Origin: a virus
Strand: one strand, 5' to 3'
Virus record (IMG/VR): IMGVR_UViG_3300032325_000466
Location: 1-64,000 of that record
Length of the DNA stretch: 64,000 nt
Positions within the stretch are counted from its first letter, which is position 1. Each line of letters begins with the position of its first letter. Below the pieces are notes generated by a model. It made no database searches. It was given only the letters and a program-made list of their open reading frames with translations, and was not told where the DNA came from. Below are positions 7,106 to 35,281 of the stretch, in pieces. The position numbers were made by a program, and so were the translations under genes.

Positions 7106-7134
7106 ATTATACACCCATATTCATTTATTGTCAA
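7106..7134 (-). promoter_or_regulatory. sigma-70 promoter with -10 dyad
   Basis: TTGACA-17-TATAAT plus the dyad and the CGGAGTT leader. It overlaps the last codons of gene 7121-7711. Confidence 0.88.
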
Positions 7135-7711
7135 ATTCATCAGGATCGTATTCAGCATCTATATCTTGGTTAGATAATTCTTCCCAAAGCTTTGGATCGT
7201 CATATGCTTTATAGTAATCTTCGTTAGCTTGTAATATTCTAAACCAAATTTTTGTGTCATATTTAAGCATTAGCCAACTTAATTGTTTTTGATCCAACAA
7301 GTCACAAATAGTGTACTTACTACCACAATCACCATATAGTGTTTTGAATGGGCTATGTTTGATATTTTCTTCTTTAAGAATTTTTTCAAAATTACCATAG
7401 AATATGATACGGGTGATGCCCTTTTCTTGGTTTACAAGACGCACCCTATCGTGTAAATGTAATACACTTGCCGTGGCATTGTTTTCACTATCAATAGTGA
7501 GCAAACATTCTTTGATTTTGATAGCACCCTTTGTATGACTGTTGTCAGGGGTTTCTTTTGTTGAAAAAGGTATTAAACTAGTAAAATGATTTACATAGTA
7601 AGTCTGCCCTTTTGCTTTGACTACCCACATGGGTATATTTGGATCTTCTAAGTGCTTCTTGTTGAAGTGAAACACCATTTCTTTACATGCTAGTTCAATC
7701 TATGAATTCAT
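7121..7711 (-). CDS. hypothetical protein whose SD-served start has an in-frame UAG at codon 4
   Basis: The best start is the ATG at 7711: AAGGAG lies eight bases before it. Reading on gives ATG AAT TCA TAG and then an open frame to TGA at 7121. The next ATG at 7678 begins the uninterrupted 185-codon part but has no good ribosome site. With UAG decoded, the product is 196 residues. The amber-suppressor tRNA gene lies 64 bases upstream in the same direction, so tRNA and target are probably co-transcribed. The protein itself (charged, no motif recognised) is of unknown function. Alternative: reinitiation at 7678 after a three-codon peptide. Confidence 0.65.
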
Positions 7712-7732
7712 TTTTAATCTCCTTGTATAGAC

Positions 7733-7740
7733 TATTTATA
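7733..7740 (-). promoter_or_regulatory. possible late promoter motif TATAAATA
   Basis: TATAAATA on the minus strand between the suppressor tRNA and the amber-containing gene, 22 bases before the ATG at 7711. It matches the T4-type late motif but is isolated among early genes, so it may be chance. Confidence 0.3.
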
Positions 7741-7774
7741 ATTTATTTTCTATATTAGATTTTTTACTTATTGA

Positions 7775-7849
7775 TGGTGCGCTTGGTGGGAATCAAACCC
7801 ACTAATCAGAGGTTTAGAAGCTCCTGCTTATTCATTTAGCTTCAAGCGC
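7775..7849 (-). tRNA. amber-suppressor tRNA, anticodon CUA
   Basis: 75 nt with encoded CCA. Acceptor GCGCTTG pairs perfectly with CAAGCGC; T arm GTGGG/CCCAC; five-base variable loop; anticodon loop TTCTAAA with U33 and A37, giving anticodon CUA, which reads UAG. The anticodon stem has one C-C mismatch next to the loop. The D loop lacks G18G19 and the T loop has U at position 56, a pair of changes that can compensate each other. The amino acid inserted cannot be told from sequence. Confidence 0.8.
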
Positions 7850-7858: not shown

Positions 7859-7864
7859 ATTATA
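7859..7864 (-). promoter_or_regulatory. extended -10 promoter of the suppressor tRNA
   Basis: TGATATAAT on the minus strand, ten bases before the first base of the tRNA; the -35 region is poor, as expected of an extended -10 promoter. A decayed TTGGCA-type box lies further upstream near 7915. Confidence 0.55.
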
Positions 7865-7921
7865 TCATACTGAAAATGTAATTAGCAACTGCGACTCACC
7901 CAAATTCATTTATTGCCAAAT

Positions 7922-25136: not shown

Positions 25137-25210
25137 TGGTACCTCGTGACAGGATCGAACTGCCGTCTGCGCCGTGTAAAGACGCGGCCCTACCATTAGA
25201 CGAACGAGGC
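25137..25210 (-). tRNA. tRNA-Val(UAC)
   Basis: Loop TTTACAC, five-pair anticodon stem, T arm GGCAG/CTGTC, CCA encoded. Cloverleaf complete with a G1-U72 wobble. Last (most downstream) tRNA of the array. Confidence 0.92.
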
Positions 25211-25216
25211 AAATTC

Positions 25217-25450
25217 TTATTTAATCTTTCGCAAATATTCTACACCGATACTGCCCTCTTGCACTTCTAATAGTGAGGACATACCGGTATGTACGTGGTC
25301 AATATCCATGTTACCACTGTTTCTATGTTGCTTACTTAGTTCTCTTGCACGGGCGGCGGCAATTAAAATAATTTCAAACCTTCCTACCCCAGCTTGTGTT
25401 ACGCATTTTTCAATATCTAAATTTAGTGCGCGGCTTAGTTTTTTTGCCAT
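25217..25450 (-). CDS. rpoZ: RNA polymerase omega subunit-like protein
   Basis: 77 residues from MAKKLSRALNLDIEKC. VGRFEIILIAAARARELS (about 21-38) and LLEVQEGSIGVEYL near the end follow bacterial omega (NRFELVL..AARRA, then an EIxxG segment). Omega clamps the beta' subunit during polymerase assembly. A phage copy could substitute for or compete with the host subunit; the many consensus sigma-70 promoters show reliance on host polymerase. Length matches the bacterial protein. Confidence 0.8.
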   Translation of the reverse strand: MAKKLSRALNLDIEKCVTQAGVGRFEIILIAAARARELSKQHRNSGNMDIDHVHTGMSSLLEVQEGSIGVEYLRKIK

Positions 25451-25451
25451 A

Positions 25452-25625
25452 TTATGCCTTTTTATCGTCAAGTGTTATTTTGTTTTTCACTGCTTCAAAG
25501 GCTTCATCCTCGGCCTTAGCATCTTCTACTATTCTGGGATCAGGCTTAGAAAAAATAGCATCCCAATTACTATCAAATGTAGTGCTATCTACACTAAACG
25601 GTCTTGGAGTGCTACCTTTGCTCAT
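25452..25625 (-). CDS. small conserved phage protein
   Basis: 57 residues, MSKGSTPRPFSVD..SNWDAIF, acidic tail. The ATG overlaps the TGA of the next gene up. I recognise similar short proteins in T4-like phages; role unknown. Confidence 0.68.
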   Translation of the reverse strand: MSKGSTPRPFSVDSTTFDSNWDAIFSKPDPRIVEDAKAEDEAFEAVKNKITLDDKKA

Positions 25626-25753
25626 TTTCCCTGTCCTCGATATTGTTTAAAACTACGCTTTTGATTTTTGTTCATTGTGCTAGTCTTAACCTGTCCACCC
25701 TGACTAGTACGCTTTATTACTGCTGTATGTTTGTTACCACTTAGTTTAGCCAT
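25622..25753 (-). CDS. small basic conserved phage protein
   Basis: 43 residues, MAKLSGNKHTAVIKRT..., very basic, ending RGQGK. Coupled to the gene below by ATGA. Possibly RNA-binding; role unknown. Confidence 0.68.
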   Translation of the reverse strand: MAKLSGNKHTAVIKRTSQGGQVKTSTMNKNQKRSFKQYRGQGK

Positions 25754-25779
25754 CTTCAGTTTCTCCTAAAAATATTGAT

Positions 25780-25857
25780 TGGTCTCGGATGAGGGATTCG
25801 AACTCTCGACCTCCTGCTCCCAAAGCAGGCATTCTAACCGGGCTGAACTAATCCGAG
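25780..25857 (-). tRNA. tRNA-Pro(UGG)
   Basis: Acceptor CTCGGAT/ATCCGAG, anticodon stem CCTGC/GCAGG with loop TTTGGGA, canonical T arm, CCA encoded. Confidence 0.93.
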
Positions 25858-25861
25858 TATA

Positions 25862-25935
25862 TGGTGGAGGTGGGGAGAATCGAACTCCCACGAAAAGCTT
25901 GCAAAGCTCCCAGGCTCCCATTACATCACACCCCC
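25862..25935 (-). tRNA. tRNA-Ala(UGC)
   Basis: Loop TTTGCAA; acceptor GGGGGTG/CACCTCC; CCA encoded. Its first two bases are the end of hairpin spacer 1. Confidence 0.93.
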
Positions 25936-26014
25936 ATATTGAAACACACTCTAATTCATTTCCATCATTTGCACTAACGGCATCAGTACTAGAAGTGAAT
26001 GTATTTCAATATGG
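25934..26014 (-). repeat. tRNA-array hairpin spacer 1
   Basis: 81 bp between tRNA-Ala and tRNA-Leu(UAG). Left arm CCATATTGAAACACACT, right arm ATGTATTTCAATATGG; arm differences are G-U pairs in the tRNA-strand RNA. The outer CCA belongs to the upstream tRNA and the closing GG to the downstream one. Confidence 0.8.
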
Positions 26015-26096
26015 TGCCCCGAGAGGGACTTGAACCCCCACCCCTTGCGAGACCAGAACCTAAATCTGGCGCGTCTGCCAATTTCGCCACCGGGGC
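26012..26096 (-). tRNA. tRNA-Leu(UAG)
   Basis: Class II tRNA; loop TTTAGGT between CCAGA and TCTGG; long variable arm; CCA encoded and shared with spacer 1. Confidence 0.93.
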
Positions 26097-26147
26097 CATA
26101 TTTCTTGCTAATATTTATACTACCTTGCAAGGTAGCTTTTTATTTAT

Positions 26148-26224
26148 TGGTGCCTCGACCTGGGCTCGAACCAGGGACCCCCGCCTTATCAAGACGGTGC
26201 TCTAACCAACTGAGCTATCGAGGC
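26148..26224 (-). tRNA. tRNA-Ile(GAU)
   Basis: Loop TTGATAA in stem CCGTC/GGCGG; acceptor GCCTCGA/TCGAGGC; CCA encoded. Confidence 0.93.
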
Positions 26225-26643
26225 ATTATGAATTTCAAGCGCCCAACTATCCCCACTGAGGGGACTCATTGGATTGTCTCAACAGTGCGAGTTTTTACAA
26301 ACCATATTCACGGTAAACTGTGGATGGCTAAGCCACCGCCGCTACTTGGGACTCAAGCCCTGCGTCTAGCTTGAAACTTGGAGTTAGCAGTTGATCACTG
26401 CCAACGATATAAAGTGCTTTCTCTTTGCGGCGGTAGTTATAGTACATCTTTAATGAGCGAGTTCTCGCATGACTGAGAAACTTTCCTCACTATGTTTACC
26501 TTCCACCCGCTTCCCGACCAAAAAGAATTATCGCATTGCCAGCGCCAGTTTGGTTAGACTAGAACCACCCGTCATTATCACATGACTTCTCATTGTGCGG
26601 GTCACACTATTGGCTGATTAGGCCAAACGTCCTTTAAAAATCT
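26225..26643 (-). other. 419-base gap with many hairpins, no gene found
   Basis: Between tRNA-Ile and tRNA-Ser. Minus-strand RNA can form numerous local stems, e.g. CCCC-TCAG-TGGGG, TTGGC/GCCAA, GCGAG-AA-CTCGC, and a domain closed by ACCGCCGC pairing with GCGGCGGT across about 95 nt. No open frame with a ribosome site, no tRNA, no clear RNase P or tmRNA. Perhaps an unrecognised ncRNA or decayed tRNA genes. Confidence 0.4.
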
Positions 26644-26734
26644 TGGCGGAGGGAGGCGGAGTCGAACCCCCAAGGCGCTATTAACGCTCAACTGTTTTCA
26701 AGACAGGTACCGTCACCAATCGGTTTGCCCCTCC
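26644..26734 (-). tRNA. tRNA-Ser(UGA)
   Basis: Class II; loop CTTGAAA; long variable arm; G73 and CCA encoded. Confidence 0.92.
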
Positions 26735-26747
26735 AAACATCCTATCA

Positions 26748-26906
26748 TTAAATCCTAACTACAGCCCATTTAACACCAAAGCTTTTTCCTGCTTCTTTGT
26801 GTTTAATGATCTTTGCAAACTCTTCATTACGAAGAGTTATTATAGCGGCTTGGTCATGTTCGACGCAAGCTTTATATACTCTTTTAACTAACTTTTTCTG
26901 TTTCAT
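26748..26906 (-). CDS. small basic hypothetical protein
   Basis: 52 residues, MKQKKLVKRVYKACVEHD.., strongly basic. Lies inside the tRNA array in the same direction. No family recognised; possibly RNA-binding. Confidence 0.55.
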   Translation of the reverse strand: MKQKKLVKRVYKACVEHDQAAIITLRNEEFAKIIKHKEAGKSFGVKWAVVRI

Positions 26907-26967
26907 TTTGATACTCTTTCATGAAAACAGTATTTAGTCGTTATTTATTACAGAAATATTACAACTT

Positions 26968-27219
26968 TTACCTAGCCTGTTCCCATGCCAGATATTTAAT
27001 ATGCTGTGGGTATAGAACATCGTGGTGACGCATCAGTCTGAAAATAGCATCACTGACTTCTTGGCTAAATCCAGCACGTTTGCCTTCCCTGCTATCAGTT
27101 ACGATTCGGTTGATAAAAAGGCTCATCTCAGGGTGGCCCCAAAAGATTTGGATACTTTTACCAATATGGGGGTGCATAGTATCGATAGTAATAAAGTTAG
27201 GGTTATGCTCAAGTTTCAT
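26968..27219 (-). CDS. hypothetical protein
   Basis: 83 residues from MKLEHNPNFITIDTM; mixed alpha/beta, IFRLMRHHDVL near the end. ATG at 27219 chosen because the longer frame reads into tRNA-Ser. No family recognised. Confidence 0.6.
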   Translation of the reverse strand: MKLEHNPNFITIDTMHPHIGKSIQIFWGHPEMSLFINRIVTDSREGKRAGFSQEVSDAIFRLMRHHDVLYPQHIKYLAWEQAR

Positions 27220-27264
27220 AGGATCATAGGATCCTCGCTGGGGGTTAAAAAAATTAAAAAGATT

Positions 27265-27361
27265 TGGCGGAGAGTGAGGGATTCGAACCCTCGAGCCCAA
27301 GTTTTTGCTCGGACTGTCTTCTTAGCAGGAAGGTGGTTTCAACCAGCTCACCCAACTCTCC
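27265..27361 (-). tRNA. tRNA-Ser(GCU)
   Basis: Class II; loop CTGCTAA; acceptor GGAGAGT/ACTCTCC; G73; CCA encoded. Confidence 0.92.
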
Positions 27362-27388
27362 TGAATACGGTTAAAAAAGATTGATATT

Positions 27389-27462
27389 TGGAGCATCCTG
27401 AGAGAATCGAACTCTCGACCGAGGATTGGAAATCCGCTATTTTACCATTAAACTAAGGATGC
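27389..27462 (-). tRNA. tRNA-Gly(UCC)
   Basis: Loop TTTCCAA; acceptor GCATCCT/AGGATGC; U73; CCA encoded. Confidence 0.92.
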
Positions 27463-27473
27463 GAATTTATATT

Positions 27474-27548
27474 TGGAGCGGGTAGTCGGGTTCGAACCGA
27501 CGACAGTCTCGTTGGCAACGAGATATTCTACCACTGAATTATACCCGC
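27474..27548 (-). tRNA. tRNA-Gly(GCC)
   Basis: Loop TTGCCAA in stem TCTCG/CGAGA; U73; CCA encoded. Confidence 0.93.
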
Positions 27549-27589
27549 ATTAAATCTATTTATACTACTATTGACTACTGTAAAAATAT

Positions 27590-27666
27590 TGGTGCCTCCA
27601 CCTGGACTCGAACCAGGAACTTACCGATTATGAGTCGGGTACTCTAACCAATTGAGTTATAGAGGC
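27590..27666 (-). tRNA. tRNA-Met(CAU), elongator or Ile2
   Basis: Loop CTCATAA in stem CCGA./TCGG; acceptor GCCTCTA/TGGAGGC; CCA encoded. CAU anticodon: Met or, if lysidine-modified, AUA-reading Ile. Confidence 0.9.
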
Positions 27667-27688
27667 GTAACTTATTGATAATACTATA

Positions 27689-27780
27689 CCATATTGAAAT
27701 ACACTATTGGACGCTTCTCAGTCGTTTAAGATTTGCCTCCAGCCTATGCCTGCAAATCTCCTAATGTATTTTCAATATGG
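27689..27780 (-). repeat. tRNA-array hairpin spacer 2
   Basis: Arms CCATATTGAAATACACT and ATGTATTTTCAATATGG (one extra base) enclose about 60 bases; right end is the CCA of tRNA-Leu(UAA). Confidence 0.75.
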
Positions 27781-28070
27781 TGCCCCGAGCCGGACTCGAA
27801 CCGGCACGCCTTACAGCGGAGGATTTTCTTACCACTATAGCTTTCGCTACCATTTCTGTTTGTGGTCTGGACTATACCTTCACCATTGCTCGCGCTTTAG
27901 GTGTCTGCCGTCTAGTCTCTACACCTTCAACAGTATTTCTACTGAAGCTTGGCTCGGTATTAGCATTTTACAGCCTTCACCGAATTTGACAGATTCTACT
28001 CCTAAGATTTCTCTCAGGGCACTCAAATTATCTATAAGTCCTCTACGTCTACCGATTCCGTCATCGGGGC
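27778..28070 (-). tRNA. tRNA-Leu(UAA) interrupted by a group I intron
   Basis: 5' exon 28070-28036 (35 nt, ends GGACTT), intron 28035-27828, 3' exon 27827-27778 (50 nt with CCA). Spliced, the anticodon arm is GAGGA-CTTAAAA-TCCTC, anticodon UAA, and the cloverleaf is a normal class II leucine tRNA with acceptor GCCCCGA/TCGGGGC. The break is after U34, the site of the cyanobacterial and plastid tRNA-Leu intron. Confidence 0.92.
27828..28035 (-). other. group I intron in tRNA-Leu(UAA), no ORF
   Basis: 208 nt. The 5' splice site follows U, which can pair with G in the guide GAGT (U-G wobble); the intron ends in G. The core has GAGACTAGACGGCAG (P7 5' strand region) and AAGGTATAGTCCAGAC (P7 3' strand), and near the 3' end GGTAGCGAAAGCTATAG, closely like the GTAGCGAAAGCTGC of the Anabaena intron from memory. 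Small and without an endonuclease gene. Self-splicing is inferred. Confidence 0.88.
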
Positions 28071-28086
28071 AATTTCTTTTTAATGT

Positions 28087-28195
28087 TTAGATCGAAATGC
28101 ACTCGCATCTGCTTTTCGAGCCGCGTGTTCTACACCCTTGATTCCTAGACTAGTACTAGGGGTGTGTGCCCATTTACACCAGCACTTCGATCTAA
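28087..28195 (-). ncRNA. leader hairpin of the tRNA transcript, spacer-like
   Basis: 109 nt between promoter 28242-28270 and tRNA-Leu(UAA). Arms TTAGATCGAAATGCACT and AGTGCTTCGATCTAA-type (one G-U) enclose nested stems ACACCC/GGGTGT and CCTAG/CTAGG. The arm resembles the CCATATTGAAACACACT box with changed but paired bases, so it looks like a divergent copy of the spacer hairpins. Confidence 0.6.
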
Positions 28196-28241
28196 CCACT
28201 AATTTTTAAAGAGCGCGGCTGATTTCTCAGCGTATATGAGT

Positions 28242-28270
28242 ATTATACTCTATATACTATTTCTTGTCAA
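28242..28270 (-). promoter_or_regulatory. sigma-70 promoter of the tRNA operon
   Basis: TTGACA-17-TATAAT with the dyad; first promoter upstream of tRNA-Leu(UAA) and the tRNAs down to 25.1 kb. Confidence 0.87.
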
Positions 28271-28482
28271 GCCACAAAATCAAATGCAAATTCTCTGCCA
28301 AGTTTAGCAATTTGAACCTTGCCAGTACCGTATACACTTGACAGTTTATGAAATACTGATCGAGCAGTTGCTTCACTGCTTGTGAGAAAAAGAGTACCTG
28401 CTTGGAATTTAGCAGTATCAGGATCCCTAAGAATCGGGTCGATCAAGACAAGCACTTGGCCTTCAAATTTCCAATCAACCAT
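28267..28482 (-). CDS. hypothetical protein
   Basis: 71 residues (MVDWKFEGQVLVLIDPIL..), alpha/beta. CGGAG before the ATG; promoter 28514-28542. No family recognised. Confidence 0.62.
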   Translation of the reverse strand: MVDWKFEGQVLVLIDPILRDPDTAKFQAGTLFLTSSEATARSVFHKLSSVYGTGKVQIAKLGREFAFDFVA

Positions 28483-28513
28483 GTTTTGCTCCGTTTCTTC
28501 AGTGTATATAGAT

Positions 28514-28542
28514 ATTATACACTACTGCCCATTTAATGTCAA
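28514..28542 (-). promoter_or_regulatory. sigma-70 promoter with -10 dyad
   Basis: TTGACA-17-TATAAT; drives 28267-28482. Confidence 0.85.
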
Positions 28543-28563
28543 CCTGAGTAGAGTGCGAGAATT

Positions 28564-28770
28564 TTACTCTACAAACTCACGCACCCACTCAAACTTAGCT
28601 TCGCTGGCTTTTACCCATTTGAAGCTATGCTGCGTCCTCTTAGAGCGTTCAAAGTCGAAACAGATAAAGATCCAACCACACTCAGAAGAAAAGCCAACCG
28701 TTTCAGCGAACCTGACGATTTGAACGATTTTGCCTGAGCCGCTTTTTTCAATAAATTTAGCGATAATCAT
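28564..28770 (-). CDS. hypothetical protein
   Basis: 68 residues, basic and aromatic (GWIFICFDFERSKRTQ). GAAAGGAG before the ATG. No family recognised. Confidence 0.62.
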   Translation of the reverse strand: MIIAKFIEKSGSGKIVQIVRFAETVGFSSECGWIFICFDFERSKRTQHSFKWVKASEAKFEWVREFVE

Positions 28771-28809
28771 TGGGGCTCCTTTCGTATCAATTTTTCAGTG
28801 TATGTGAGT

Positions 28810-28838
28810 ATTATATACCCAAATCTATTTATTGTCAA
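28810..28838 (-). promoter_or_regulatory. sigma-70 promoter with -10 dyad
   Basis: TTGACA-17-TATAAT; drives 28564-28770. Confidence 0.85.
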
Positions 28839-28999
28839 CCTGAACTTATATAGGTGTTGATAGAATCGACTGGGGCATGATTTACAAAGTCTGCATTTTT
28901 TTCATCCAATCTATCTATCAACTTTATCTTAAATTTAGAATCGGCTGGGCCAAGCACCGATACGCGATGCCTGCGCAAAGTTTCATCCAGCATACTCAT
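28835..28999 (-). CDS. possible small hypothetical protein
   Basis: 54 codons (MSMLDETLRRHRVSVLG..), stop TGA inside the downstream promoter as for its neighbours. No clear ribosome site, so tentative. Confidence 0.45.
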   Translation of the reverse strand: MSMLDETLRRHRVSVLGPADSKFKIKLIDRLDEKNADFVNHAPVDSINTYISSG

Positions 29000-29018
29000 C
29001 TATTTTGTATCTACATTA

Positions 29019-29110
29019 TGGCTGTCGGTTTCGATACGACACTGGGGCATTTGTTTGCCTACTCCACTTGCGTGTCTCGGACTTCCCCCGCACTACCTTT
29101 ATGCTAAGCC
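29019..29110 (-). ncRNA. tRNA-like sequence, defective
   Basis: 92 nt ending CCA, with D-arm-like GCATAAAGGTAGTGC and a T-arm-like TGTCG/CGACA stem with a nine-base loop. The acceptor pairs in only four positions and the anticodon loop lacks U33. A decayed or atypical tRNA. Confidence 0.4.
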
Positions 29111-29233
29111 ATATTGAAACACACTGCTTGAAGTCGTCACTCCTGATATGGTTAGGAATCGAACCTAACATTACCGACGGATCTCGTCGTCGCTCTACCA
29201 ATGGCGTTCATATCACAATATGTTTCAATATGG
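29109..29233 (-). repeat. tRNA-array hairpin spacer 3, containing a tRNA-like core
   Basis: Arms CCATATTGAAACACACT and ATATGTTTCAATATGG; differences G-U compatible on the minus strand. Interior includes the tRNA-like RNA at 29145-29214. Five bases separate it from spacer 4. Confidence 0.75.
29145..29214 (-). ncRNA. tRNA-like RNA with five-base anticodon loop
   Basis: T arm TTAGG-TTCGATT-CCTAA is perfect and acceptor GATATG/CATATC pairs, but the anticodon arm is CGACG-AGATC-CGTCG (five-pair stem, five-base loop) and no CCA is encoded. Unlikely to be decoded on ribosomes. Confidence 0.45.
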
Positions 29234-29238
29234 TGAAG

Positions 29239-29334
29239 CCATATTGAAGGACACTATAGCTTCCTCTTGAGGCTTGCTAGACATTTCGCTTCGTAGCACC
29301 GAGCCTTGTACTCGGATAATATCCTTCAATATGG
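29239..29334 (-). repeat. tRNA-array hairpin spacer 4
   Basis: Arms CCATATTGAAGGACACT and ATATCCTTCAATATGG: the usual AAC/GTT is replaced by AGG/CCT on both sides, a covariation. Right end is the CCA of tRNA-Phe. Confidence 0.8.
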
Positions 29335-29407
29335 TGCCAAGAGTTGGAATCGAACCAACCACACCCGATTCTTCAGACCGGTGCTCTACCAACTGAGCTA
29401 TCTTGGC
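29332..29407 (-). tRNA. tRNA-Phe(GAA)
   Basis: Loop CTGAAGA; acceptor GCCAAGA/TCTTGGC; canonical D and T arms; CCA encoded. Confidence 0.93.
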
Positions 29408-29415
29408 ATCTAACT

Positions 29416-29492
29416 TGGTACTAGGAAGATGGAATCCAACCATCTATTGCCGTCAGTAGCTGACGAAGGCTTGGTCATTAGCCGATCCTAGT
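29416..29492 (-). ncRNA. tRNA-like RNA with all stems intact but altered loops
   Basis: Acceptor ACTAGGA/TCCTAGT, D stem GGCT/AGCC, anticodon stem and T stem all pair, CCA encoded. Yet the anticodon loop AGCTACT lacks U33, the D loop lacks G18G19 and the T loop TTGGATT has G at 56, opposite a C in the D loop. Apparent anticodon CUA is unreliable. Confidence 0.5.
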
Positions 29493-29500
29493 ATATAACC

Positions 29501-29575
29501 TGGGGTGTAGGACGGGATTCGAACCCGCATCCTCCGGCAATAAACCCGGACTCTAACCATTGAGCTACTTACACC
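29501..29575 (-). tRNA. tRNA-His paralogue with abnormal anticodon loop
   Basis: Closely similar to the tRNA-His beside it (same T arm, C73, G-1, CCA), but the anticodon arm is TCCGG-GTTTATTG-CCGGA, giving an eight-base loop and no GUG. Could be inactive, or a frameshift-type tRNA; anticodon not assigned. Confidence 0.55.
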
Positions 29576-29590
29576 ATTGTATTATTAACC

Positions 29591-29666
29591 TGGGGTGTAG
29601 GACGGGATTCGAACCCGCATCAACCGGCTTCACAATCCGGGGCTTTACCATTAAGCTACCTACACC
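29591..29666 (-). tRNA. tRNA-His(GUG)
   Basis: Loop TTGTGAA; extra G-1 opposite C73, the histidine identity pair; acceptor GTGTAGG/CCTACAC; CCA encoded. Confidence 0.9.
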
Positions 29667-29677
29667 ATTGTATTATT

Positions 29678-29753
29678 TGGCGCCCCGTAGGGGTTTCGAT
29701 CCCCTTACCTCAGCAGTGACAGTGCTGTGCTCTCCCGATTGAGCTAACGGAGC
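29678..29753 (-). tRNA. tRNA-Asp(GUC)
   Basis: Loop CTGTCAC in stem CAGCA/TGCTG; G73; T loop ATCGAAA (unusual A54); CCA encoded. Confidence 0.9.
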
Positions 29754-29763
29754 TTATAAAATT

Positions 29764-29843
29764 TGGCGCATCCGAAAGGATTCGAACCTTCATGTATCCA
29801 GTTAACCTTTCAACTGGTTCGTAGCCAGAGGGTATACGGACGC
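29764..29843 (-). tRNA. tRNA-Asn-like with insertion in anticodon loop
   Basis: Acceptor GCGTCCG/CGGATGC, canonical T arm and G73 with CCA. The anticodon region reads CCAG-TT-GAAAG-GTTAA-CTGG: removing GAAAG leaves a normal Asn loop TTGTTAA. The D arm is also replaced by a tight stem. Probably non-decoding unless processed. Confidence 0.5.
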
Positions 29844-30007
29844 TAAATTTGTAGCCGGTGTAGACACATCGGGACATCACTCCTTCCCGCTACTCCGTTT
29901 ACCAAGAAGGCTTTTCGATAATTGTCTTGTGATAGAAGACTTTCTCTACTTTGTTTTTACAGGCCTCTGATTGTCTCTCCCACTAGACTCTGCTCCTACT
30001 ACAAAAC
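29844..30007 (-). other. 164-base gap, no gene seen
   Basis: Between two tRNAs. No open frame with a ribosome site and no tRNA cloverleaf; a few short stems only. Confidence 0.5.
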
Positions 30008-30084
30008 TGGTGGTGATGAGTGGATTCGAACCACCGCGCATTACCTTATGAGGGTACCGATCTACCAGGCTGAACTACATCACC
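30008..30084 (-). tRNA. tRNA-Met(CAU)
   Basis: Loop CTCATAA; acceptor GGTGATG/CATCACC; CCA encoded. Elongator Met or AUA-reading Ile2. Confidence 0.88.
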
Positions 30085-30173
30085 ATATTGAAACACACTA
30101 CCCGCATGTTATCCGGCATATCTACAAATATGTCCAACTGTTGTAGCAGTCAATGCAATGTGTTTCAATATGG
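30083..30173 (-). repeat. tRNA-array hairpin spacer 5
   Basis: Arms CCATATTGAAACACACT and AATGTGTTTCAATATGG around about 55 bases; left end is G1G2 of tRNA-Met. Arm differences are G-U compatible. Confidence 0.8.
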
Positions 30174-30279
30174 TTGCCGGTTACGCGTCCGGCTTGCAAG
30201 TGTTACGCAACGCTAAATTAATTCACGATCATGTCGGGCACAATCCGAATAACCGACCTGTCTACAGGTTTCGCCTTCA
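30174..30279 (-). ncRNA. multi-hairpin RNA between spacers 5 and 6
   Basis: Minus strand contains ACCTGT-AG-ACAGGT, TCGG/CCGA and a T-arm-like GCCGG/CCGGC stem ending ACCA. The flanking boxes can also pair with each other (15 pairs), closing the domain. Not a cloverleaf; function unknown. Confidence 0.4.
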
Positions 30280-30393
30280 CCATATTGAAACACACCACCA
30301 AGCATTTCGATTGCTAATGCCGGCGCCCTTTTTTACTTTCGGAGTTGAACCGAATACCAACCCAACATGTTGGAGTAATGTGTTTCAATATGG
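30280..30393 (-). repeat. tRNA-array hairpin spacer 6
   Basis: Arms CCATATTGAAACACACC and AATGTGTTTCAATATGG; three differences, all G-U compatible. Interior has a T-arm-like TCGG-TTCAACT-CCGA. Confidence 0.78.
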
Positions 30394-30466
30394 TGCCCAC
30401 CCTGAGGATTCAAACCTCAGCCTAAACAGACAAATTCTGCTGACCAGTCACTGGATCTCAGCGGGC
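30391..30466 (-). ncRNA. tRNA-like RNA without usable anticodon loop
   Basis: 76 nt with CCA. Acceptor GCCCGCT/GGTGGGC, D stem GATC/GGTC and T arm TGAGG-TTTGAAT-CCTCA pair, but the anticodon arm is GCAGA-ATTTG-TCTGT (five-base loop) and the D loop lacks GG. Confidence 0.45.
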
Positions 30467-30482
30467 ATACTTTACTACATCA

Positions 30483-30615
30483 CCATATTGAAACACACTG
30501 CAATCATCGCTTGCTGGCATCGGTACGACCCGAGCGTATCCAGTAGTTCGTGACGAGCCGATCCTTCCAACCACTGTCGGCCACCCCTTGGGTAGGACAA
30601 TATGCTTCAATGTGG
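30483..30615 (-). repeat. tRNA-array hairpin spacer 7
   Basis: Arms CCATATTGAAACACACT and ATATGCTTCAATGTGG around about 97 bases. Three of four arm differences are G-U compatible. Confidence 0.7.
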
Positions 30616-30698
30616 GCTCACAACTTCTACGCCAGTTCGTCACCGGTAGCCCCTTGGCTAGCAGACGCTGTAATCATCTGAGGGGTTTATGGTCTAGA
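30616..30698 (-). ncRNA. hairpin-rich segment between spacers 7 and 8
   Basis: Minus strand TAGCC-AAGG-GGCTA and other short stems, ending GAGCCCA. No cloverleaf; possibly a degenerate tRNA. Confidence 0.3.
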
Positions 30699-30833
30699 CC
30701 ATATTGAAACACACTTCACAATACACAGACGATCCATATGTCTTTACGATATCGTTCTTCGGGCAGAGTAAAGGCTCGTTGGCCCGATTATGTATTCTTT
30801 CTGTTACTAGCCAAGAAATATATTTCAATATAG
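30699..30833 (-). repeat. tRNA-array hairpin spacer 8
   Basis: Arms CCATATTGAAACACACTTC and GAAATATATTTCAATATAG; all four differences are G-U compatible on the minus strand. Confidence 0.75.
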
Positions 30834-30841
30834 TAACCCAC

Positions 30842-30901
30842 TGTGGGGTGGACTTCGAAACCACCAACTCGCCGCGCTTTTCCTGTTAAGCTACATACAC
30901 C
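30842..30901 (-). ncRNA. tRNA-like fragment lacking an anticodon arm
   Basis: D arm GCTT/AAGC and T-arm-like GTGG/CCAC are separated by only about ten bases. Apparently a tRNA gene with the anticodon arm deleted. Confidence 0.35.
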
Positions 30902-30912
30902 GACCTTCACCG

Positions 30913-30970
30913 ATGCTGGGAGGAATCGAACCCCATCTCTCTGCGTTTTACCTTAAACTACCACGGGTCC
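30913..30970 (-). ncRNA. second tRNA-like fragment lacking an anticodon arm
   Basis: D-arm-like TAGTTTAAGGTAAAAC and T arm GGGG-TTCGATT-CCTC lie nine bases apart; acceptor does not pair. Confidence 0.35.
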
Positions 30971-31016
30971 TCGGAGTCATGACTTCCGAGAATGATAATG
31001 GTTAATTACTCCTTTA

Positions 31017-31145
31017 CCATATATAAACACACTGCCGATTATGACACCGTTGTCCGTGTCTTACTCTAGTCATATACTATCCGTTAAGATAGTATCGTTA
31101 ATTGAGACTGCAATCAATACAACTAAACAATGTGTTTGTATATGG
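31017..31145 (-). repeat. tRNA-array hairpin spacer 9
   Basis: Arms CCATATATAAACACACT and AATGTGTTTGTATATGG: both sides depart from the usual TTGAAAC/GTTTCAA together. Right end is the CCA of tRNA-Lys. Confidence 0.75.
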
Positions 31146-31218
31146 TGGGGGCAGGGGGATTCGAACCCTCCAACTTATCGGTTAAAAGCCGAGTACTCTA
31201 CCATTGAGTTATACCCCC
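31143..31218 (-). tRNA. tRNA-Lys(UUU)
   Basis: Loop CTTTTAA in stem CTCGG/CCGAT; acceptor GGGGGTA/TGCCCCC; CCA encoded. Confidence 0.92.
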
Positions 31219-31272
31219 ATGGGTTTACCACTCTTATCACTAGCCATAACAGGCTCTCCTTTTAAAAAAATT

Positions 31273-31347
31273 TGGTACACCCACGGGGAGTCGAACCCCG
31301 CTTTCCGGCGTGAAAGGCCAGCGTCCTAACCGATAGACGATGAGTGC
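31273..31347 (-). tRNA. tRNA-Glu(UUC)
   Basis: Loop CTTTCAC in stem CTGGC/GCCGG; acceptor GCACTCA/TGGGTGT; CCA encoded. Confidence 0.92.
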
Positions 31348-31353
31348 ATAGCT

Positions 31354-31431
31354 TGGAGTAGGGAGTCGGATTCGAACCGACGAATCAACTGGGTTGCGAC
31401 CAGTGCCATTAAGCCTCTTTGGTATCCCTAC
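31354..31431 (-). tRNA. tRNA-Cys(GCA), unusual C33
   Basis: Stem ACTGG/CCAGT with loop TCGCAAC: anticodon GCA but position 33 is C rather than U. Acceptor GTAGGGA/TCCCTAC, U73, canonical T arm, CCA encoded. Confidence 0.82.
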
Positions 31432-31438
31432 ATAAATT

Positions 31439-31523
31439 TGGTGGAGCGTACTGGGATCGAACCAGTCGTGCCCGAAGGCGGCGGATTTACAGTCCACTGC
31501 ATCACCATTGATGCTTCCACTCC
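31439..31523 (-). tRNA. tRNA-Tyr(GUA)
   Basis: Class II; acceptor GGAGTGG/ACGCTCC, D arm GCAT/ATGC, stem GTGGA/TCCGC with loop CTGTAAA, variable arm with TTCG, CCA encoded. Confidence 0.9.
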
Positions 31524-31616
31524 GTTATTTTTGACTTATGTTTGCATACTGTATTGATTGATATGCAGAATGAGTCTTTCCTTTGATCGGCCCTGAATTT
31601 ACAGCTAGCGCGAATT

Positions 31617-31704
31617 TGGTGGGTAGTGATGGTAACGCTCCACGAGGCAACTTCCTGACTCATTATGCCGTCGGTTTTACAGACCGATGTCAGGGGCACC
31701 ACCC
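31617..31704 (-). tRNA. second tRNA-Tyr(GUA)-like gene lacking a D arm
   Basis: Acceptor GGGTGGT/ACTACCC, anticodon stem TCGGT/ACCGA with loop CTGTAAA, CCA. Only ten bases separate acceptor and anticodon stems, so no D arm; those bases (CCTGAC) can instead pair with GTCAGG in the enlarged variable region. T loop AGCGTTA is atypical. Confidence 0.5.
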
Positions 31705-31725
31705 ATATTCTTTATTAAACTAAAT

Positions 31726-31802
31726 TGGAAGCGGGTAATGGAATCGAACCATTCTTTACTGGCTTATGAGACCAGTCAGTTCTACCAGAACTGTAACCCG
31801 CA
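31726..31802 (-). tRNA. initiator-like tRNA(CAU)
   Basis: Loop CTCATAA in CTGGT/GCCAG. The acceptor leaves positions 1 and 72 unpaired and the D stem has an A11-U24 pair, both features of initiator tRNAs. CCA encoded. Confidence 0.75.
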
Positions 31803-31812
31803 ATTGTTTTTT

Positions 31813-31889
31813 TGGCGACCCCTGATGGATTCGAACCACCGACACGCGGCTTTGGAGACCGCTGTTCTACCAGGCTGAACTAAGGAGCC
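31813..31889 (-). tRNA. tRNA-Trp(CCA)
   Basis: Stem GCGGT/GCCGC with loop CTCCAAA; G73; CCA encoded. Confidence 0.92.
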
Positions 31890-31899
31890 AATTAAAATA

Positions 31900-32018
31900 C
31901 CATATTGAAGTACATTGCAACTTTGGCAAAGACGTTATATTACGCCAATTAGTGAGGCACCGTCATCGTGCATTCCTAGGAGCACTTTCCAATCTTAAGG
32001 CAATATACTTCAATATGG
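31900..32018 (-). repeat. tRNA-array hairpin spacer 10
   Basis: Arms CCATATTGAAGTACATTGC and GCAATATACTTCAATATGG: AGT/ACT replaces AAC/GTT on both sides (covariation); one G-U difference. Confidence 0.8.
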
Positions 32019-32163
32019 TAGCAGGACTCGAACCTGCGCTGGAATAGTCCGTCGCACTAGCTATTCCGATCGGTTGCTGCCATGAGTGCGGACTCAGCAT
32101 TTTACTGCTGACTGCCATCCATAATAGGCTCATCCTCGACCGTGTTACCAACTGCACCATACC
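32016..32163 (-). ncRNA. tRNA-like domain closed by neighbouring spacer boxes
   Basis: Minus strand: box-derived TATGGTA pairs with TACCATA as an acceptor; D-arm-like GTG-CAGTTGGTAA-CAC and a perfect T arm GCAGG-TTCGAGT-CCTGC follow. Between them about 100 nt fold into stems such as TCAGCA/TGCTGA and GGAATAG/CTATTCC. No anticodon arm, no group I core. A tRNA-ended structured RNA of unknown role. Confidence 0.4.
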
Positions 32164-32238
32164 ATATTGAAACACACTGACCAATCTGGGTAGTTGTGTC
32201 GTGCCACTGATCCGCGCAAACAGTGTGTTTCAATATAG
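32162..32238 (-). repeat. tRNA-array hairpin spacer 11
   Basis: Arms CCATATTGAAACACACTG and CAGTGTGTTTCAATATAG, 17 of 18 paired and the other G-U; interior 41 bases. A second hairpin AGTGTCTT/AAGACACT (32237-32255) abuts it. Confidence 0.82.
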
Positions 32239-32273
32239 TGTCTTTTTAAGACACTAAAAACTAGGATTTTTCT

Positions 32274-32359
32274 GTCTCACAAGAGAGACTCCATCCTCTA
32301 GCCCGACCGTTCGTCCATGTTTTAAGTGCGGACTAGGACCTCGTTTCCTATGCACACTT
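32274..32359 (-). ncRNA. structured leader RNA, copy A
   Basis: Downstream of promoter 32385-32413. Minus strand AAGTG/CACTT encloses TAGG/CCTA, followed by GTCTC/GAGAC. It aligns with copy B at 35774-35857 (shared AAACATG, GAGTCTCT and TGTGAGA), with inner-stem bases changed on both sides. Both precede a spacer-type hairpin and tRNA genes. Confidence 0.6.
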
Positions 32360-32384
32360 ACTGCTAATTTCACACTATACTGAC

Positions 32385-32413
32385 ATTATATCACCTAGAT
32401 GATTTATTGTCAA
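32385..32413 (-). promoter_or_regulatory. sigma-70 promoter of leader RNA A
   Basis: TTGACA-17-TATAAT on the minus strand; transcribes leader A and probably the tRNAs from 32.2 kb downward. Confidence 0.85.
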
Positions 32414-32560
32414 TCTCAGTTTTACGGTACTGAGAAACGTCATGCCTGTCAGCTATCAGGCTGCTTTGCTACTTACTATGAAAATAGAGTATCATTTTCC
32501 ACCGTTTTTCGCTATTGCTACTCGGGCAGTTGATTTCTTCGTTTTTCACAGCATACAAGC
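32414..32560 (-). other. 147-base leader region, no gene seen
   Basis: Between promoters 32385-32413 and 32561-32589. Contains hairpins GCCTG/CAGGC and CTCAGT/ACTGAG; no plausible open frame with a ribosome site. Confidence 0.4.
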
Positions 32561-32589
32561 ATTATACATCAATAACCATTTATTGTCAA
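32561..32589 (-). promoter_or_regulatory. sigma-70 promoter
   Basis: TTGACA-17-TATAAT; the UAG stop of gene 32592 lies three bases above it. Confidence 0.83.
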
Positions 32590-32591
32590 AC

Positions 32592-32774
32592 CTAGAAACT
32601 TTTACCTCTCGTGAAGCTTTTAAGTTGCCAAAATCTTTGCCATTTAACCGCTTGCTTAGTTTTATGCGTATACCTATATAGCCTAATGCCATCAATCAGT
32701 TTAAAGTAAGGCTTGGGTTTTGGCATACCTCTAAGTAATCTAGCAGCAGTTCTTTCGTATTCTTTTGTAATCAT
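32592..32774 (-). CDS. small very basic protein, UAG stop
   Basis: 60 residues, rich in K, R and aromatic residues (LYRYTHKTKQAVKWQRFW); AAAGG before the ATG. Likely nucleic-acid binding. Ends in UAG, with TGA two codons later. Confidence 0.6.
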   Translation of the reverse strand: MITKEYERTAARLLRGMPKPKPYFKLIDGIRLYRYTHKTKQAVKWQRFWQLKSFTRGKSF

Positions 32775-32792
32775 ACTAGACCTTTAGAAAAT

Positions 32793-32868
32793 TGGCGCGA
32801 CTGGAAGGATTCAAACCTCCGACCAATCGGGTAGAAGCCGATGGCTCTATTCACTGAGCTACAGTCGC
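32793..32868 (-). tRNA. tRNA-Arg(UCU)
   Basis: Stem ATCGG/CCGAT with loop CTTCTAC; acceptor GCGACTG/CAGTCGC; G73; CCA. D loop has AA where G18G19 normally stand and T loop TTTGAAT has U56, so a 19-56 A-U pair replaces G-C. Confidence 0.9.
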
Positions 32869-32960
32869 AATATAAAGAGTATACTATGTGTTGGATTTAT
32901 TGTCAAACACTACTAAGAAAAATGGATACGAAGAAAAATCTTTATATCCATTTGTAACTT

Positions 32961-33032
32961 TGGCTCCGCGATTAGGAATCGAACCTAACTTGCTTTCGCA
33001 CAGATTAACAGTCTGCTGCCACACCTTGCGGC
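32961..33032 (-). tRNA. tRNA-Asn(GUU)-like gene lacking a D arm
   Basis: Anticodon arm GCAGA-CTGTTAA-TCTGT and T arm TTAGG-TTCGATT-CCTAA are canonical, G73 and CCA present. The acceptor is imperfect and only about nine bases link it to the anticodon stem, so no D arm; the variable region has a TGC-GAAA-GCA hairpin. The only candidate here with a normal GUU loop. Confidence 0.6.
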
Positions 33033-33047
33033 TCTCACGGAATATTT

Positions 33048-33122
33048 TGGTGCCCCCTGAGAGATTTGAACTCCCGACCTTCGGTTTACAAAACCGCTGC
33101 ACTACCACTGTGCTAAAGGGGC
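33048..33122 (-). tRNA. tRNA-Thr(UGU)
   Basis: Loop TTTGTAA in stem GCGGT/ACCGA; acceptor GCCCCTT/AGGGGGC; CCA encoded. Confidence 0.92.
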
Positions 33123-33177
33123 TTAAAAACTTTTATAAAACTATTTATCGCTATACTACACTATAAAAACTTTTTTG

Positions 33178-33366
33178 TCAACCGAATATTGTGATCTCAC
33201 CGCGCCAAGACCATTCATGGTCTCCACCTTTTTCCCAAAGTGCTTTATAATATTCAGCCGATTCTAGGGTAGTGAATAGTTTAGTGTCACAGGGAGCAAG
33301 TCGCTGGACGCCGGCTTCGTATTCAGTAATGACAACTCTATAAAGAGTACCTAGTTGAGCTTCCAT
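33178..33366 (-). CDS. hypothetical protein
   Basis: 62 residues, acidic, Trp-containing; AAGGAG before the ATG; promoter 33403-33431. No family recognised. Confidence 0.62.
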   Translation of the reverse strand: MEAQLGTLYRVVITEYEAGVQRLAPCDTKLFTTLESAEYYKALWEKGGDHEWSWRGEITIFG

Positions 33367-33402
33367 TTCACACTCCTTCTGTTTATCAGTTTCAATACAA
33401 GT

Positions 33403-33431
33403 ATTATACTACTATGCCCATTTATTGTCAA
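33403..33431 (-). promoter_or_regulatory. sigma-70 promoter
   Basis: TTGACA-17-TATAAT; drives 33178-33366 and probably the tRNAs below. Confidence 0.85.
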
Positions 33432-33509
33432 CCGAGCAATAATCTACTATGTTTTGGGATACTTTTTATGTTAAAAATTACATTCTCTACACGCTGCATA
33501 AATATTACA

Positions 33510-34289
33510 ATGAATACTAAAATTTACACTATATATCGGGCTACCAATATAATTAACGGTAAGGTATACATCGGATTCGACTCTAATTGGCCAAAAAGGA
33601 TGAGTGAGCATATTTGGGCTGCATTACGAGGTGATCAATTAGTATTTTATAATGCCATTCGCAAATACGGGACAAACAATTTTGTATGGGATATACTTTA
33701 TCAATCAACTGACGGTTCTCACACGAAAGATATTATGGAGGGGATTTTCATAAAAGAATATAACTCTCATATTCATTTTGAAAATAGTAACGGATACAAT
33801 ATGACCTTAGGCGGTGACGGTACTCTAGGTTATAATCACTTACAGATTACCAAGGATAAAATTAAGGAATTCAATATTGGCAAGAAGGCAAGCGAAGGAA
33901 CATGCGAAAAAATTTCAAATTCTAAAAAAGGAAAAACACTTAAACATTCTGGATCATTTCAACCGGGCCACACACCCTGGTGTAAGGGTAAAAAAATGTC
34001 TGTTGAATTTTCTAATAACTGTTCTGTAGGTCAACAAAAAAGATTTGAAAGTGCAGAAGAAAGAAATAAACTAAATCAGGCTAGAATTAAAGGTAGAGCC
34101 GCTCATAAAGAAAAGGCAAAAATTAAAATTGTATTCCCTGACGGAAAAATTGAGATCATGACTCCAGCAGACTTTTCCAAAAAATATAATTTTAATGAGC
34201 GAACAGTTTACTGGAACCTAAAAAAATACAAAGGTAATCTCATACCGTCTGGTAAATTAGCGGGATTCACTCTAGCCTCTAAGTCGTGA
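33510..34289 (+). CDS. GIY-YIG homing endonuclease with NUMOD3-type repeats
   Basis: 259 residues from ATG at 33510. IYTIYRATNIINGKVYIGFD (about 4-23) is the GIY-YIG core; a conserved Glu lies in IMEGIFIKEY; C-terminal motifs such as KISNSKKGKT and GHTPWCKGK are NUMOD3-like DNA-binding units. Plus-strand gene inserted among minus-strand genes and free-standing, as typical of T4-like seg genes. Its end overlaps the end of the HNH gene. Confidence 0.85.
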   Translation: MNTKIYTIYRATNIINGKVYIGFDSNWPKRMSEHIWAALRGDQLVFYNAIRKYGTNNFVWDILYQSTDGSHTKDIMEGIFIKEYNSHIHFENSNGYNMTLGGDGTLGYNHLQITKDKIKEFNIGKKASEGTCEKISNSKKGKTLKHSGSFQPGHTPWCKGKKMSVEFSNNCSVGQQKRFESAEERNKLNQARIKGRAAHKEKAKIKIVFPDGKIEIMTPADFSKKYNFNERTVYWNLKKYKGNLIPSGKLAGFTLASKS

Positions 34290-34832
34290 ATACTTAGGAA
34301 TTCCGGACATTAAAAAATCCATTTGATCGGCTAATATATTTCTGTGCTGAAGAATCATATTTTCCCAATGATTGGGTACATATGGAATATACAACAATTC
34401 CATTTTTGCCTCCTTCAGAGTCTTGCTGCCCTTAGCAGAGTTACAGGTTTTACATGAAGTGATACAATTAAGCCAAGTATTTTGTCCACCGCGACTTTTA
34501 GGTACAATATGGTCACGGCTAAGAACATTGTGATTGGCAAAATGAGCACCACAGTAAGCACAGATATTTCTATCACGACCAAACAGTGTTCTATTGCTAA
34601 GAGCAACTTGAGCATGTTTTTGTGGATTGAATCCAGTACCTTTGATGGCGATAATGCTAGGAGTTTCAATGTAGCTTAGTGTTCCATCTTGCTGAACACC
34701 ACCACGATATTTAGCCACAACTGTGCCCATAGACCAAGCTACAGATTTGGTAGCCCAGTAAGCGATTGCATCGTCATAGCCGATCCATTGTCTTGGTGTG
34801 CCTGAAATATCTAGTGCTAACACTACTGCCAT
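34272..34832 (-). CDS. HNH endonuclease
   Basis: 186 residues. A long N-terminal part, then CAYCG (about 94-98), SRDHIVPKSRGGQNTWLN (His-Asn metal centre, about 108-125) and CKTCN (about 130-134): an HNH nuclease with a zinc-binding cysteine cage. AAGGAG upstream. Homing or packaging-type nuclease; convergent with the GIY-YIG gene. Confidence 0.85.
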   Translation of the reverse strand: MAVVLALDISGTPRQWIGYDDAIAYWATKSVAWSMGTVVAKYRGGVQQDGTLSYIETPSIIAIKGTGFNPQKHAQVALSNRTLFGRDRNICAYCGAHFANHNVLSRDHIVPKSRGGQNTWLNCITSCKTCNSAKGSKTLKEAKMELLYIPYVPNHWENMILQHRNILADQMDFLMSGIPKYSRLRG

Positions 34833-34879
34833 TTTCTTACTCCTTTGTCAAGTCTTGATACTACTATTTAGTTGCTTAC

Positions 34880-34954
34880 TGGCGGGTCCTGCAGGAATCG
34901 AACCCGCATCCTTTGGTTCGAAGCCAAAAATTCTATCCATTGAAATAAGGACCC
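34880..34954 (-). tRNA. tRNA-Arg(UCG)
   Basis: Stem TTTGG/CCAAA with loop CTTCGAA; acceptor GGGTCCT/AGGACCC; G73; CCA encoded. Confidence 0.92.
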
Positions 34955-35277: not shown

Positions 35278-35281
35278 AAAA

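What the first reader, a model, noticed from the sequence alone, without database searches (positions are those of the whole stretch)
7121..7849. Amber-suppressor tRNA next to a gene whose SD-served start has UAG as codon 4
Seen: the tRNA at 7775-7849 has loop TTCTAAA, anticodon CUA. The next gene downstream has AAGGAG eight bases before ATG AAT TCA TAG, followed in the same frame by the open 185-codon part. The alternative ATG at 7678 lacks a ribosome site. Known: suppressor tRNAs occur in phages, usually with genome-wide recoding; here UAG is still used as a stop elsewhere. Inferred: the gene is switched on only when the suppressor tRNA accumulates, a self-contained amber switch that could delay or gate expression.
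Basis: partly seen in the sequence, partly recalled or inferred. Interest (0 to 1): 0.9.

Follow-up and report, generated by a model that had tools for sequence, protein, structure and literature searches.

The report
Phage gene gated by suppressor tRNA
Many large phages carry a gene with a stop codon a few codons after its start, together with a phage tRNA whose anticodon matches that stop codon, so the protein is probably made only when the phage's own tRNA is present; this may be the missing target of the 'orphan' suppressor tRNAs reported in several phages.

Summary
The window phage (191 kb, standard code) has a tRNA-CUA (7849-7775) 63 nt upstream of a gene that starts SD-ATG-AAT-TCA-UAG. 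I collected 160 phage records with this gene family or its operon. All carry a start-proximal in-frame stop: 141 have UAG on the family gene, 18 a stop on an upstream PTH2/PTH2-like (peptidyl-tRNA hydrolase) gene, one UAG in a leader ORF. tRNA-CUA was found in 141 of the 157 records with a UAG-gated gene; all 136 copies in held stretches lie on the gene's strand. Two independent lineages (Atu_ph07, contig L120) use UGA instead; both carry tRNA-UCA and no tRNA-CUA was found. The same gate sits on PTH2-like genes of cultured phages XacN1, RAS14, ME3, CBB, XbC2, Arash and pT24, all with tRNA-CUA; RaK2 has the gene ungated and no tRNA-CUA was found. The XacN1 authors could not identify a target for their suppressor tRNAs; a candidate now exists. 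Suppression-dependent expression is very likely. Its purpose is unproven: I favour a feed-forward (AND) gate on a peptidyl-tRNA/translation-maintenance function. No experiment has been done.

The parts
7859..7888 (-). Promoter-like site (TTGCTA, 18 nt, extended TATAAT) ending 9 nt before the tRNA 5' end
   Evidence: consensus scan, 10 of 12 matches, TG before -10; a consensus match only
7775..7849 (-). Suppressor tRNA, anticodon CUA at 7815-7817, encoded CCA end
   Evidence: Rfam 46.7 bits; family of 65 tRNAs with compensatory changes in 17 of 18 pairs; 19-56 pair covaries
7719..7724 (-). Shine-Dalgarno AAGGAG
   Evidence: sequence; SD-like motif before the start in 82 of 87 non-redundant relatives
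7700..7702 (-). The gate: in-frame UAG as codon 4
   Evidence: UAG in 141 of 141 records in which the family gene is the gated gene
7121..7711 (-). UAG-gated gene: 196 residues with UAG read as one residue, stop TGA; family unnamed, function unknown
   Evidence: translation; relatives 43-86% identical; AlphaFold mean pLDDT 90.1 but no confident PDB fold match

Best explanation
A two-part translational gate: a phage-encoded suppressor tRNA and a start-proximal stop codon of the same kind together make one gene's expression depend on the tRNA. In the window a promoter at the tRNA 5' end probably makes one transcript of tRNA plus gene (inferred: no terminator-like site between them). Processing frees the tRNA and the host charges it (inferred). 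Without it, ribosomes that start at the ATG stop after three codons; with it they read UAG as an amino acid and make the 196-residue protein (inferred from conservation and covariation). Because message and charged tRNA are both needed, the circuit is a coherent feed-forward (AND) gate that suppresses leak and delays the product. The product probably serves peptidyl-tRNA or translation maintenance (weaker inference: the same gate sits on PTH2 or PTH2-like genes in the same operon or in other phages), so the gate may also report how much stop-codon suppression, or how little release, is going on. The residue inserted, the timing and the activity of the window protein are unknown. Confidence given is for suppression-dependent expression; for the stated purpose it is about 0.35.
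For: UAG invariant in 141 records while the string from ATG to UAG has 36 versions in 87 non-redundant genes; codons after it conserved as protein with synonymous third positions. tRNA-CUA found in 127 of these 141 and in 14 of 16 UAG-gated PTH2 records, 136 of 136 on the gene's strand, next commonest anticodon 26. UGA-gated Atu_ph07 and L120 carry tRNA-UCA, no tRNA-CUA found, and are separate in the PTH2 tree across a 100/100 branch. The gate moves to PTH2 where PTH2 precedes the family gene. Independent PTH2-like family in cultured phages: gate plus tRNA-CUA in XacN1, RAS14, ME3, CBB, XbC2, Arash, pT24; RaK2 ungated, no tRNA-CUA. tRNAs structurally maintained. Window promoter and no terminator between tRNA and gene.
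Against: No tRNA-CUA seen in 14 gated family records: mostly fragments or contig ends, but also L193 (298 kb) and L128 (150 kb). The tRNA is sometimes kilobases away or downstream, so co-transcription is not general. Charging, readthrough and timing are untested. Record counts are not independent events, and only the best-scoring relatives were held.
Confidence: 0.87

Rival explanations
1. The ATG-few-codons-UAG is a minigene or leader: ribosomes terminate there and the protein is made by reinitiation or from a cryptic start after the UAG; short peptidyl-tRNAs made at the minigene are the signal, as with phage lambda bar minigenes, and the tRNA is incidental.
For: Mini-ORFs of 1 to 4 codons before the UAG, and linkage to PTH2, whose substrate is peptidyl-tRNA. 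Early codons are drop-off sites and hungry codons promote drop-off (PMC10192219).
Against: The stop is never UAA and is UGA only where the phage has tRNA-UCA. No conserved start codon after the UAG: the next codon is ATT in 51 of 65 but also ATC, GTA, ACT. Conservation starts at the codon after the UAG.
Confidence: 0.06
2. Drift: once a phage has a suppressor tRNA, stop codons in genes become tolerated and then lock the tRNA in (constructive neutral evolution); no regulatory benefit.
For: Mimasvirus HD genes next to the gated PTH2-like gene carry a further internal UAG, as tolerance would predict. Acceptor stems and discriminator base of the tRNAs vary.
Against: UAGs are not scattered: in the window genome only this gene is gated. 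The position is always start-proximal, in one functional group of genes, and reappears on PTH2 when absent from the family gene.
Confidence: 0.1
3. Autogenous sensor of termination or suppression rather than a timing switch: as in prfB, product is made when release at the gate is weak or suppression strong, and the PTH2-like product relieves the consequences. Same parts and same readthrough step, different purpose.
For: Gated genes are PTH2 or PTH2-like in many phages. Two lineages sense UGA instead of UAG with matching tRNA.
Against: The window protein is not PTH2-like and its activity is unknown. No data on release-factor levels.
Confidence: 0.3
4. Sequencing or assembly error, or a broken gene with a pseudo-tRNA.
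For: The window is one metagenomic virus record, and default ARAGORN misses the tRNA.
Against: Same stop in 141 records and in cultured phage RHph_I1_18, with protein conservation after the stop; tRNA tertiary pair kept.
Confidence: 0.01

Closest known systems
Synthetic suppressor-tRNA coherent feed-forward loop ('leak dampener', Ho et al. 2020, PMC7969014)
   Same: Suppressor tRNA plus stop codons in the regulated gene, so output needs both; built with amber and also opal stops, as the phages appear to do.
   Different: Engineered in E. coli; here natural, conserved, one start-proximal stop on a specific class of phage genes.
Phage stop-codon recoding (genetic code 15, crAss-like phages and others; PMC9523058, PMC10607447)
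   Same: Phage suppressor tRNA-CUA reads UAG in phage genes.
   Different: There many genes carry in-frame UAG and UAG is reassigned; here TAG remains a stop and the window genome has one gated gene.
Orphan phage suppressor tRNAs (XacN1 PMC5852040, Summit PMC9022506, RsoM2USA PMC8504454, Atu_ph07 PMC6102473)
   Same: Standard-code phages with a suppressor tRNA; XacN1 and Atu_ph07 are members of the pattern found here.
   Different: Targets were reported as unknown or unspecified; a target is proposed here for XacN1 and Atu_ph07. Summit and RsoM2USA were not tested; the Summit relative DLP_5 gave no clear candidate.
prfB (release factor 2) autoregulation by an early in-frame UGA
   Same: An early in-frame stop makes expression of a translation factor depend on termination strength (general knowledge).
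   Different: prfB uses a +1 frameshift and no suppressor tRNA; here the frame is unchanged.
Lambda bar minigenes and Pth
   Same: Very short ATG-codon-stop units linked to peptidyl-tRNA hydrolase biology (general knowledge).
   Different: bar minigenes are not the start of a longer conserved protein and have no suppressor tRNA.

Membership tests
Genome-wide UAG recoding (genetic code 15) | Many genes with in-frame UAG and UAG avoided as a stop | tested here: not met
   14 of 161 ORFs of at least 100 aa end in TAG; only one plausible start-gated gene in 191 kb; internal UAGs far from starts were not searched for systematically
Genome-wide UAG recoding (genetic code 15) | Phage-encoded tRNA-CUA | tested here: met
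Suppressor-tRNA-gated gene (feed-forward design) | Stop codon in the gene matches the anticodon of a suppressor tRNA of the same genome | tested here: met
   UAG with CUA in 141 of 157 gated records; UGA with UCA in 2 of 2
Suppressor-tRNA-gated gene (feed-forward design) | Output needs the tRNA | not testable with these tools
   needs a reporter or mass spectrometry
Pyrrolysine system | tRNA-Pyl shape (short D loop without GG, 6-bp anticodon stem, 3-nt variable loop) | tested here: not met
   the alignment shows ordinary cloverleafs, GG or GA in the D loop, ordinary variable loop; the 'tRNA-Pyl' label is ARAGORN's name for any CUA anticodon
Pyrrolysine system | pylS and pylBCD genes | not tested
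   not searched
Peptidyl-tRNA hydrolase PTH2 (gated genes of Phosso, Atu_ph07, L118, L120, XacN1 ORF364) | Pfam PTH2 profile above cut-off | tested here: met
   59 to 90 bits for the jumbo-phage genes, 25.3 for XacN1 ORF364, cut-off 23
Peptidyl-tRNA hydrolase PTH2 (short gated genes of L056, L151, L186) | Pfam PTH2 profile above cut-off | tested here: inconclusive
   15 to 20 bits, below 23; profile-profile match of their family to PTH2 96.9%
Peptidyl-tRNA hydrolase PTH2 (for the window gene itself) | PTH2 profile or fold | tested here: not met
   no Pfam or PHROG match above threshold; no confident PDB fold match

The most novel reading that the evidence does not exclude
A widespread natural regulatory device, a dedicated suppressor tRNA plus a matching start-proximal stop codon, controls a peptidyl-tRNA or ribosome-maintenance function in large phages that otherwise use the standard code. 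It lets the phage time that function or sense termination capacity, and it accounts for many orphan phage suppressor tRNAs.
Probability: 0.55. Interest if true: 0.95.

Novelty: new variant of a known kind. Interest (0 to 1): 0.9.

Why it matters
Suppressor tRNAs occur in many standard-code phages, and papers on single phages say the target is unknown (PMC5852040, PMC9022506). Here a target is proposed, with predictions that can be tested in cultured phages (RHph_I1_18, XacN1, RAS14, ME3, CBB, XbC2, Arash, pT24, Phosso, Atu_ph07). If confirmed it would be a natural counterpart of a synthetic-biology circuit and a distinct way for viruses to control a gene through the genetic code. It would also explain why gene callers start these genes too late or miss them.

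Tried and rejected
Internal initiation at 7678: rejected (Met in 3 of 65 relatives). Pseudo-tRNA: rejected. Pyrrolysine: tRNA shape does not fit. Genome-wide recoding: not met. Function of the window protein: no Pfam or PHROG family, no PDB sequence match, no confident PDB fold match; a weak WW-domain likeness (E 0.13) was not pursued. A scan of bacterial genome contigs found no relative. My intermediate reading that L056, Phosso and Atu_ph07 lack gate and tRNA was wrong: the gate is on PTH2 and the tRNA lies further away. A TAA copy of the gate before an endonuclease in L187, L194, L197 and L200 has no tRNA-UUA in the stretch, probably a decayed copy. DLP_5, a relative of Summit: no convincing gated gene.

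Full report
Observation. On the minus strand the window carries, in order, a promoter-like site (7888-7859), a tRNA with anticodon CUA (7849-7775), a Shine-Dalgarno AAGGAG (7724-7719) and the start ATG AAT TCA TAG (7711-7700), after which the frame stays open to TGA at 7121. The tRNA scores 46.7 bits against Rfam's model. It looks degenerate (C31-C39 mismatch, no G18G19), but its 19-56 tertiary pair is A-U, as in the only two other aligned relatives with A19, while the 62 with G19 have C56. The window lies in a 191,027-base virus record. There TAG is a rarer but normal stop (TAA 92, TGA 55, TAG 14), and this is the only plausible start-gated coding gene.

Relatives. IMG/VR scans found 289 relatives with the family alignment and 385 with a domain alignment; the best 80 of each were held. 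With the PTH2 loci, three cultured phages and the window this gives 160 distinct records. In 141 the family gene starts with a start codon, a short variable string and UAG, never UAA or UGA. Among 87 non-redundant genes the UAG is mostly codon 3 (49) or 5 (16), and the string has 36 versions. Codons after the UAG are conserved as amino acids with synonymous third positions. So the region beyond the stop is translated in this frame from its first codons, and the stop itself is under selection.

The tRNA. tRNA-CUA was found in 127 of these 141 records and in 14 of 16 records with a UAG-gated PTH2 gene. All 136 copies in the held stretches lie on the gene's strand; the next commonest anticodon there has 26 copies. 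Upstream is usual, but in RHph_I1_18, L033, L085 and L086 the tRNA is directly downstream. The set shows compensatory changes in 17 of 18 predicted pairs. Acceptor stem and discriminator base vary, so the gate rather than one particular residue seems to be what is kept (inference).

The gate moves and changes type. In Sinorhizobium phage Phosso, Agrobacterium phage Atu_ph07 and contigs L110-L121 the family domain is part of a longer ungated protein. The gate sits on a PTH2 gene upstream, which GenBank starts after the gate in Phosso and Atu_ph07. In L056, L125, L151 and L186 again the PTH2 or PTH2-like gene is gated and the family gene is not. Atu_ph07 and L120 have UGA instead of UAG, carry tRNA-UCA, and no tRNA-CUA was found in them; the Atu_ph07 authors also report a UCA suppressor (PMC6102473). 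A PTH2 tree separates the two across a 100/100 branch, and their tRNA-UCA sequences differ. Two independent changes of stop codon matched by the anticodon are the strongest evidence that the tRNA decodes the gate.

Wider occurrence. The XacN1 authors found two CUA suppressor tRNAs per terminal repeat and could not identify targets (PMC5852040). A scan of 320 kb of XacN1 for gated genes gave, among many non-coding hits, ORF364: AGAGGA, ATG AAG TAG, then 283 residues ending in a PTH2 domain. Its homologues in RAS14, ME3, XbC2, CBB, GAP32, BF, Kaldavass, Arash and Tenacibaculum phage pT24 have UAG at codon 3 or 4 of the inferred start. tRNA-CUA was found in XacN1, RAS14, ME3, CBB, XbC2, Arash and pT24; the CBB copy has a poorly paired acceptor stem. 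GAP32, BF and Kaldavass were not searched for it. RaK2 has the gene without a gate, and no tRNA-CUA was found there. Ordinary PTH2 genes of other phages (phiM12, Baka, SCTP-2, XacN1 ORF295) are ungated. PTH2-like and PTH2 profiles match at 96.9% (hhalign).

Mechanism. Shown by sequence: gate, matching tRNA, covariation of stop and anticodon, conserved frame. Inferred: co-transcription in the window (promoter-like site, no terminator-like site between tRNA and gene), charging, readthrough, dependence of the product on the tRNA, and the benefit. Such a circuit is a coherent feed-forward loop like the engineered one of Ho et al. (PMC7969014), which needs both message and suppressor tRNA. As to why peptidyl-tRNA hydrolases: early codons are where peptidyl-tRNA drops off, hungry codons promote it, and Pth recycles it (PMC10192219). 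A gate placed there could report suppression or termination capacity. This is plausible but untested, and the window protein has no identified activity.

Exceptions and limits. No tRNA-CUA was seen in 14 gated family records, mostly fragments or contig ends, but also L193 (298 kb) and L128 (150 kb); L160 and L161 have a tRNA with an odd anticodon loop in the usual place. Virus records may be incomplete. Relatives were taken by best similarity, so distant ungated members may be missed, and records are not independent events. The 14 genomes without the tRNA leave room for a host suppressor or for a gate read another way.

Novelty. In the held literature I found whole-genome stop-codon recoding and orphan suppressor tRNAs without targets, but no report of a conserved start-proximal gate with its own tRNA. 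The library lacks most subscription papers and preprints, so this is not proof of novelty. Because suppressor-tRNA-dependent phage genes are a known kind, I file it as a new variant of that kind.

Noticed in passing
L058:4329-4997, L158:4211-4978, L189:3119-3793, L187:1576-2256: Endonuclease-like genes (NUMOD3 motif or HNH) sit directly in front of the gated gene and begin with a copy of the gate (ATG GCA TAG; in L187 ATG TCG TAA), as if homing elements inserted at the start and duplicated it.
   Followed up: partly
L176:4797-5016: Family gene ungated, but between tRNA-CUA and gene lies a short leader ORF ATG ATG TTA AAA GAG CAC TAG whose readthrough frame runs across a terminator-like hairpin (-18.6 kcal/mol): possible antitermination version of the gate.
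   Followed up: partly
L272, L273, L333, L334 (XbC2, CBB, GAP32, Kaldavass): The HD-domain gene after the gated PTH2-like gene has a second in-frame UAG at one conserved place (ELDTG-UAG-GD), so its GenBank annotation is in fragments.
   Followed up: partly
L275:2316-2390 (Salmonella phage Arash): GenBank annotates this tRNA as tRNA-Phe; ARAGORN reads anticodon CUA.
   Followed up: yes
L160:4726-4802, L161:1539-1615: In the usual place of tRNA-CUA lies a tRNA with an odd anticodon loop (TGCCCTAACA); its decoding is unclear.
   Followed up: no
L193 (298-kb contig), L128 (150-kb contig): UAG-gated family genes with no tRNA-CUA found among the contig's tRNAs.
   Followed up: partly
window 8172-8144 and 7134-7106 (-): Repeated perfect sigma-70-type promoters (TTGACA-17-TATAAT within TTGACAATAAATGAAT...); a diverged copy lies near 7920.
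   Followed up: no
L266 and L267 (Stenotrophomonas phage DLP_5): Annotated suppressor tRNA-CUA at 50270-50342 of the record, but no convincing start-gated gene in the scan; its target is still open.
   Followed up: partly
window 25137-35697 (-): Cluster of 26 ARAGORN-called tRNA genes; the suppressor tRNA lies about 17 kb away from it, next to its gene.
   Followed up: no
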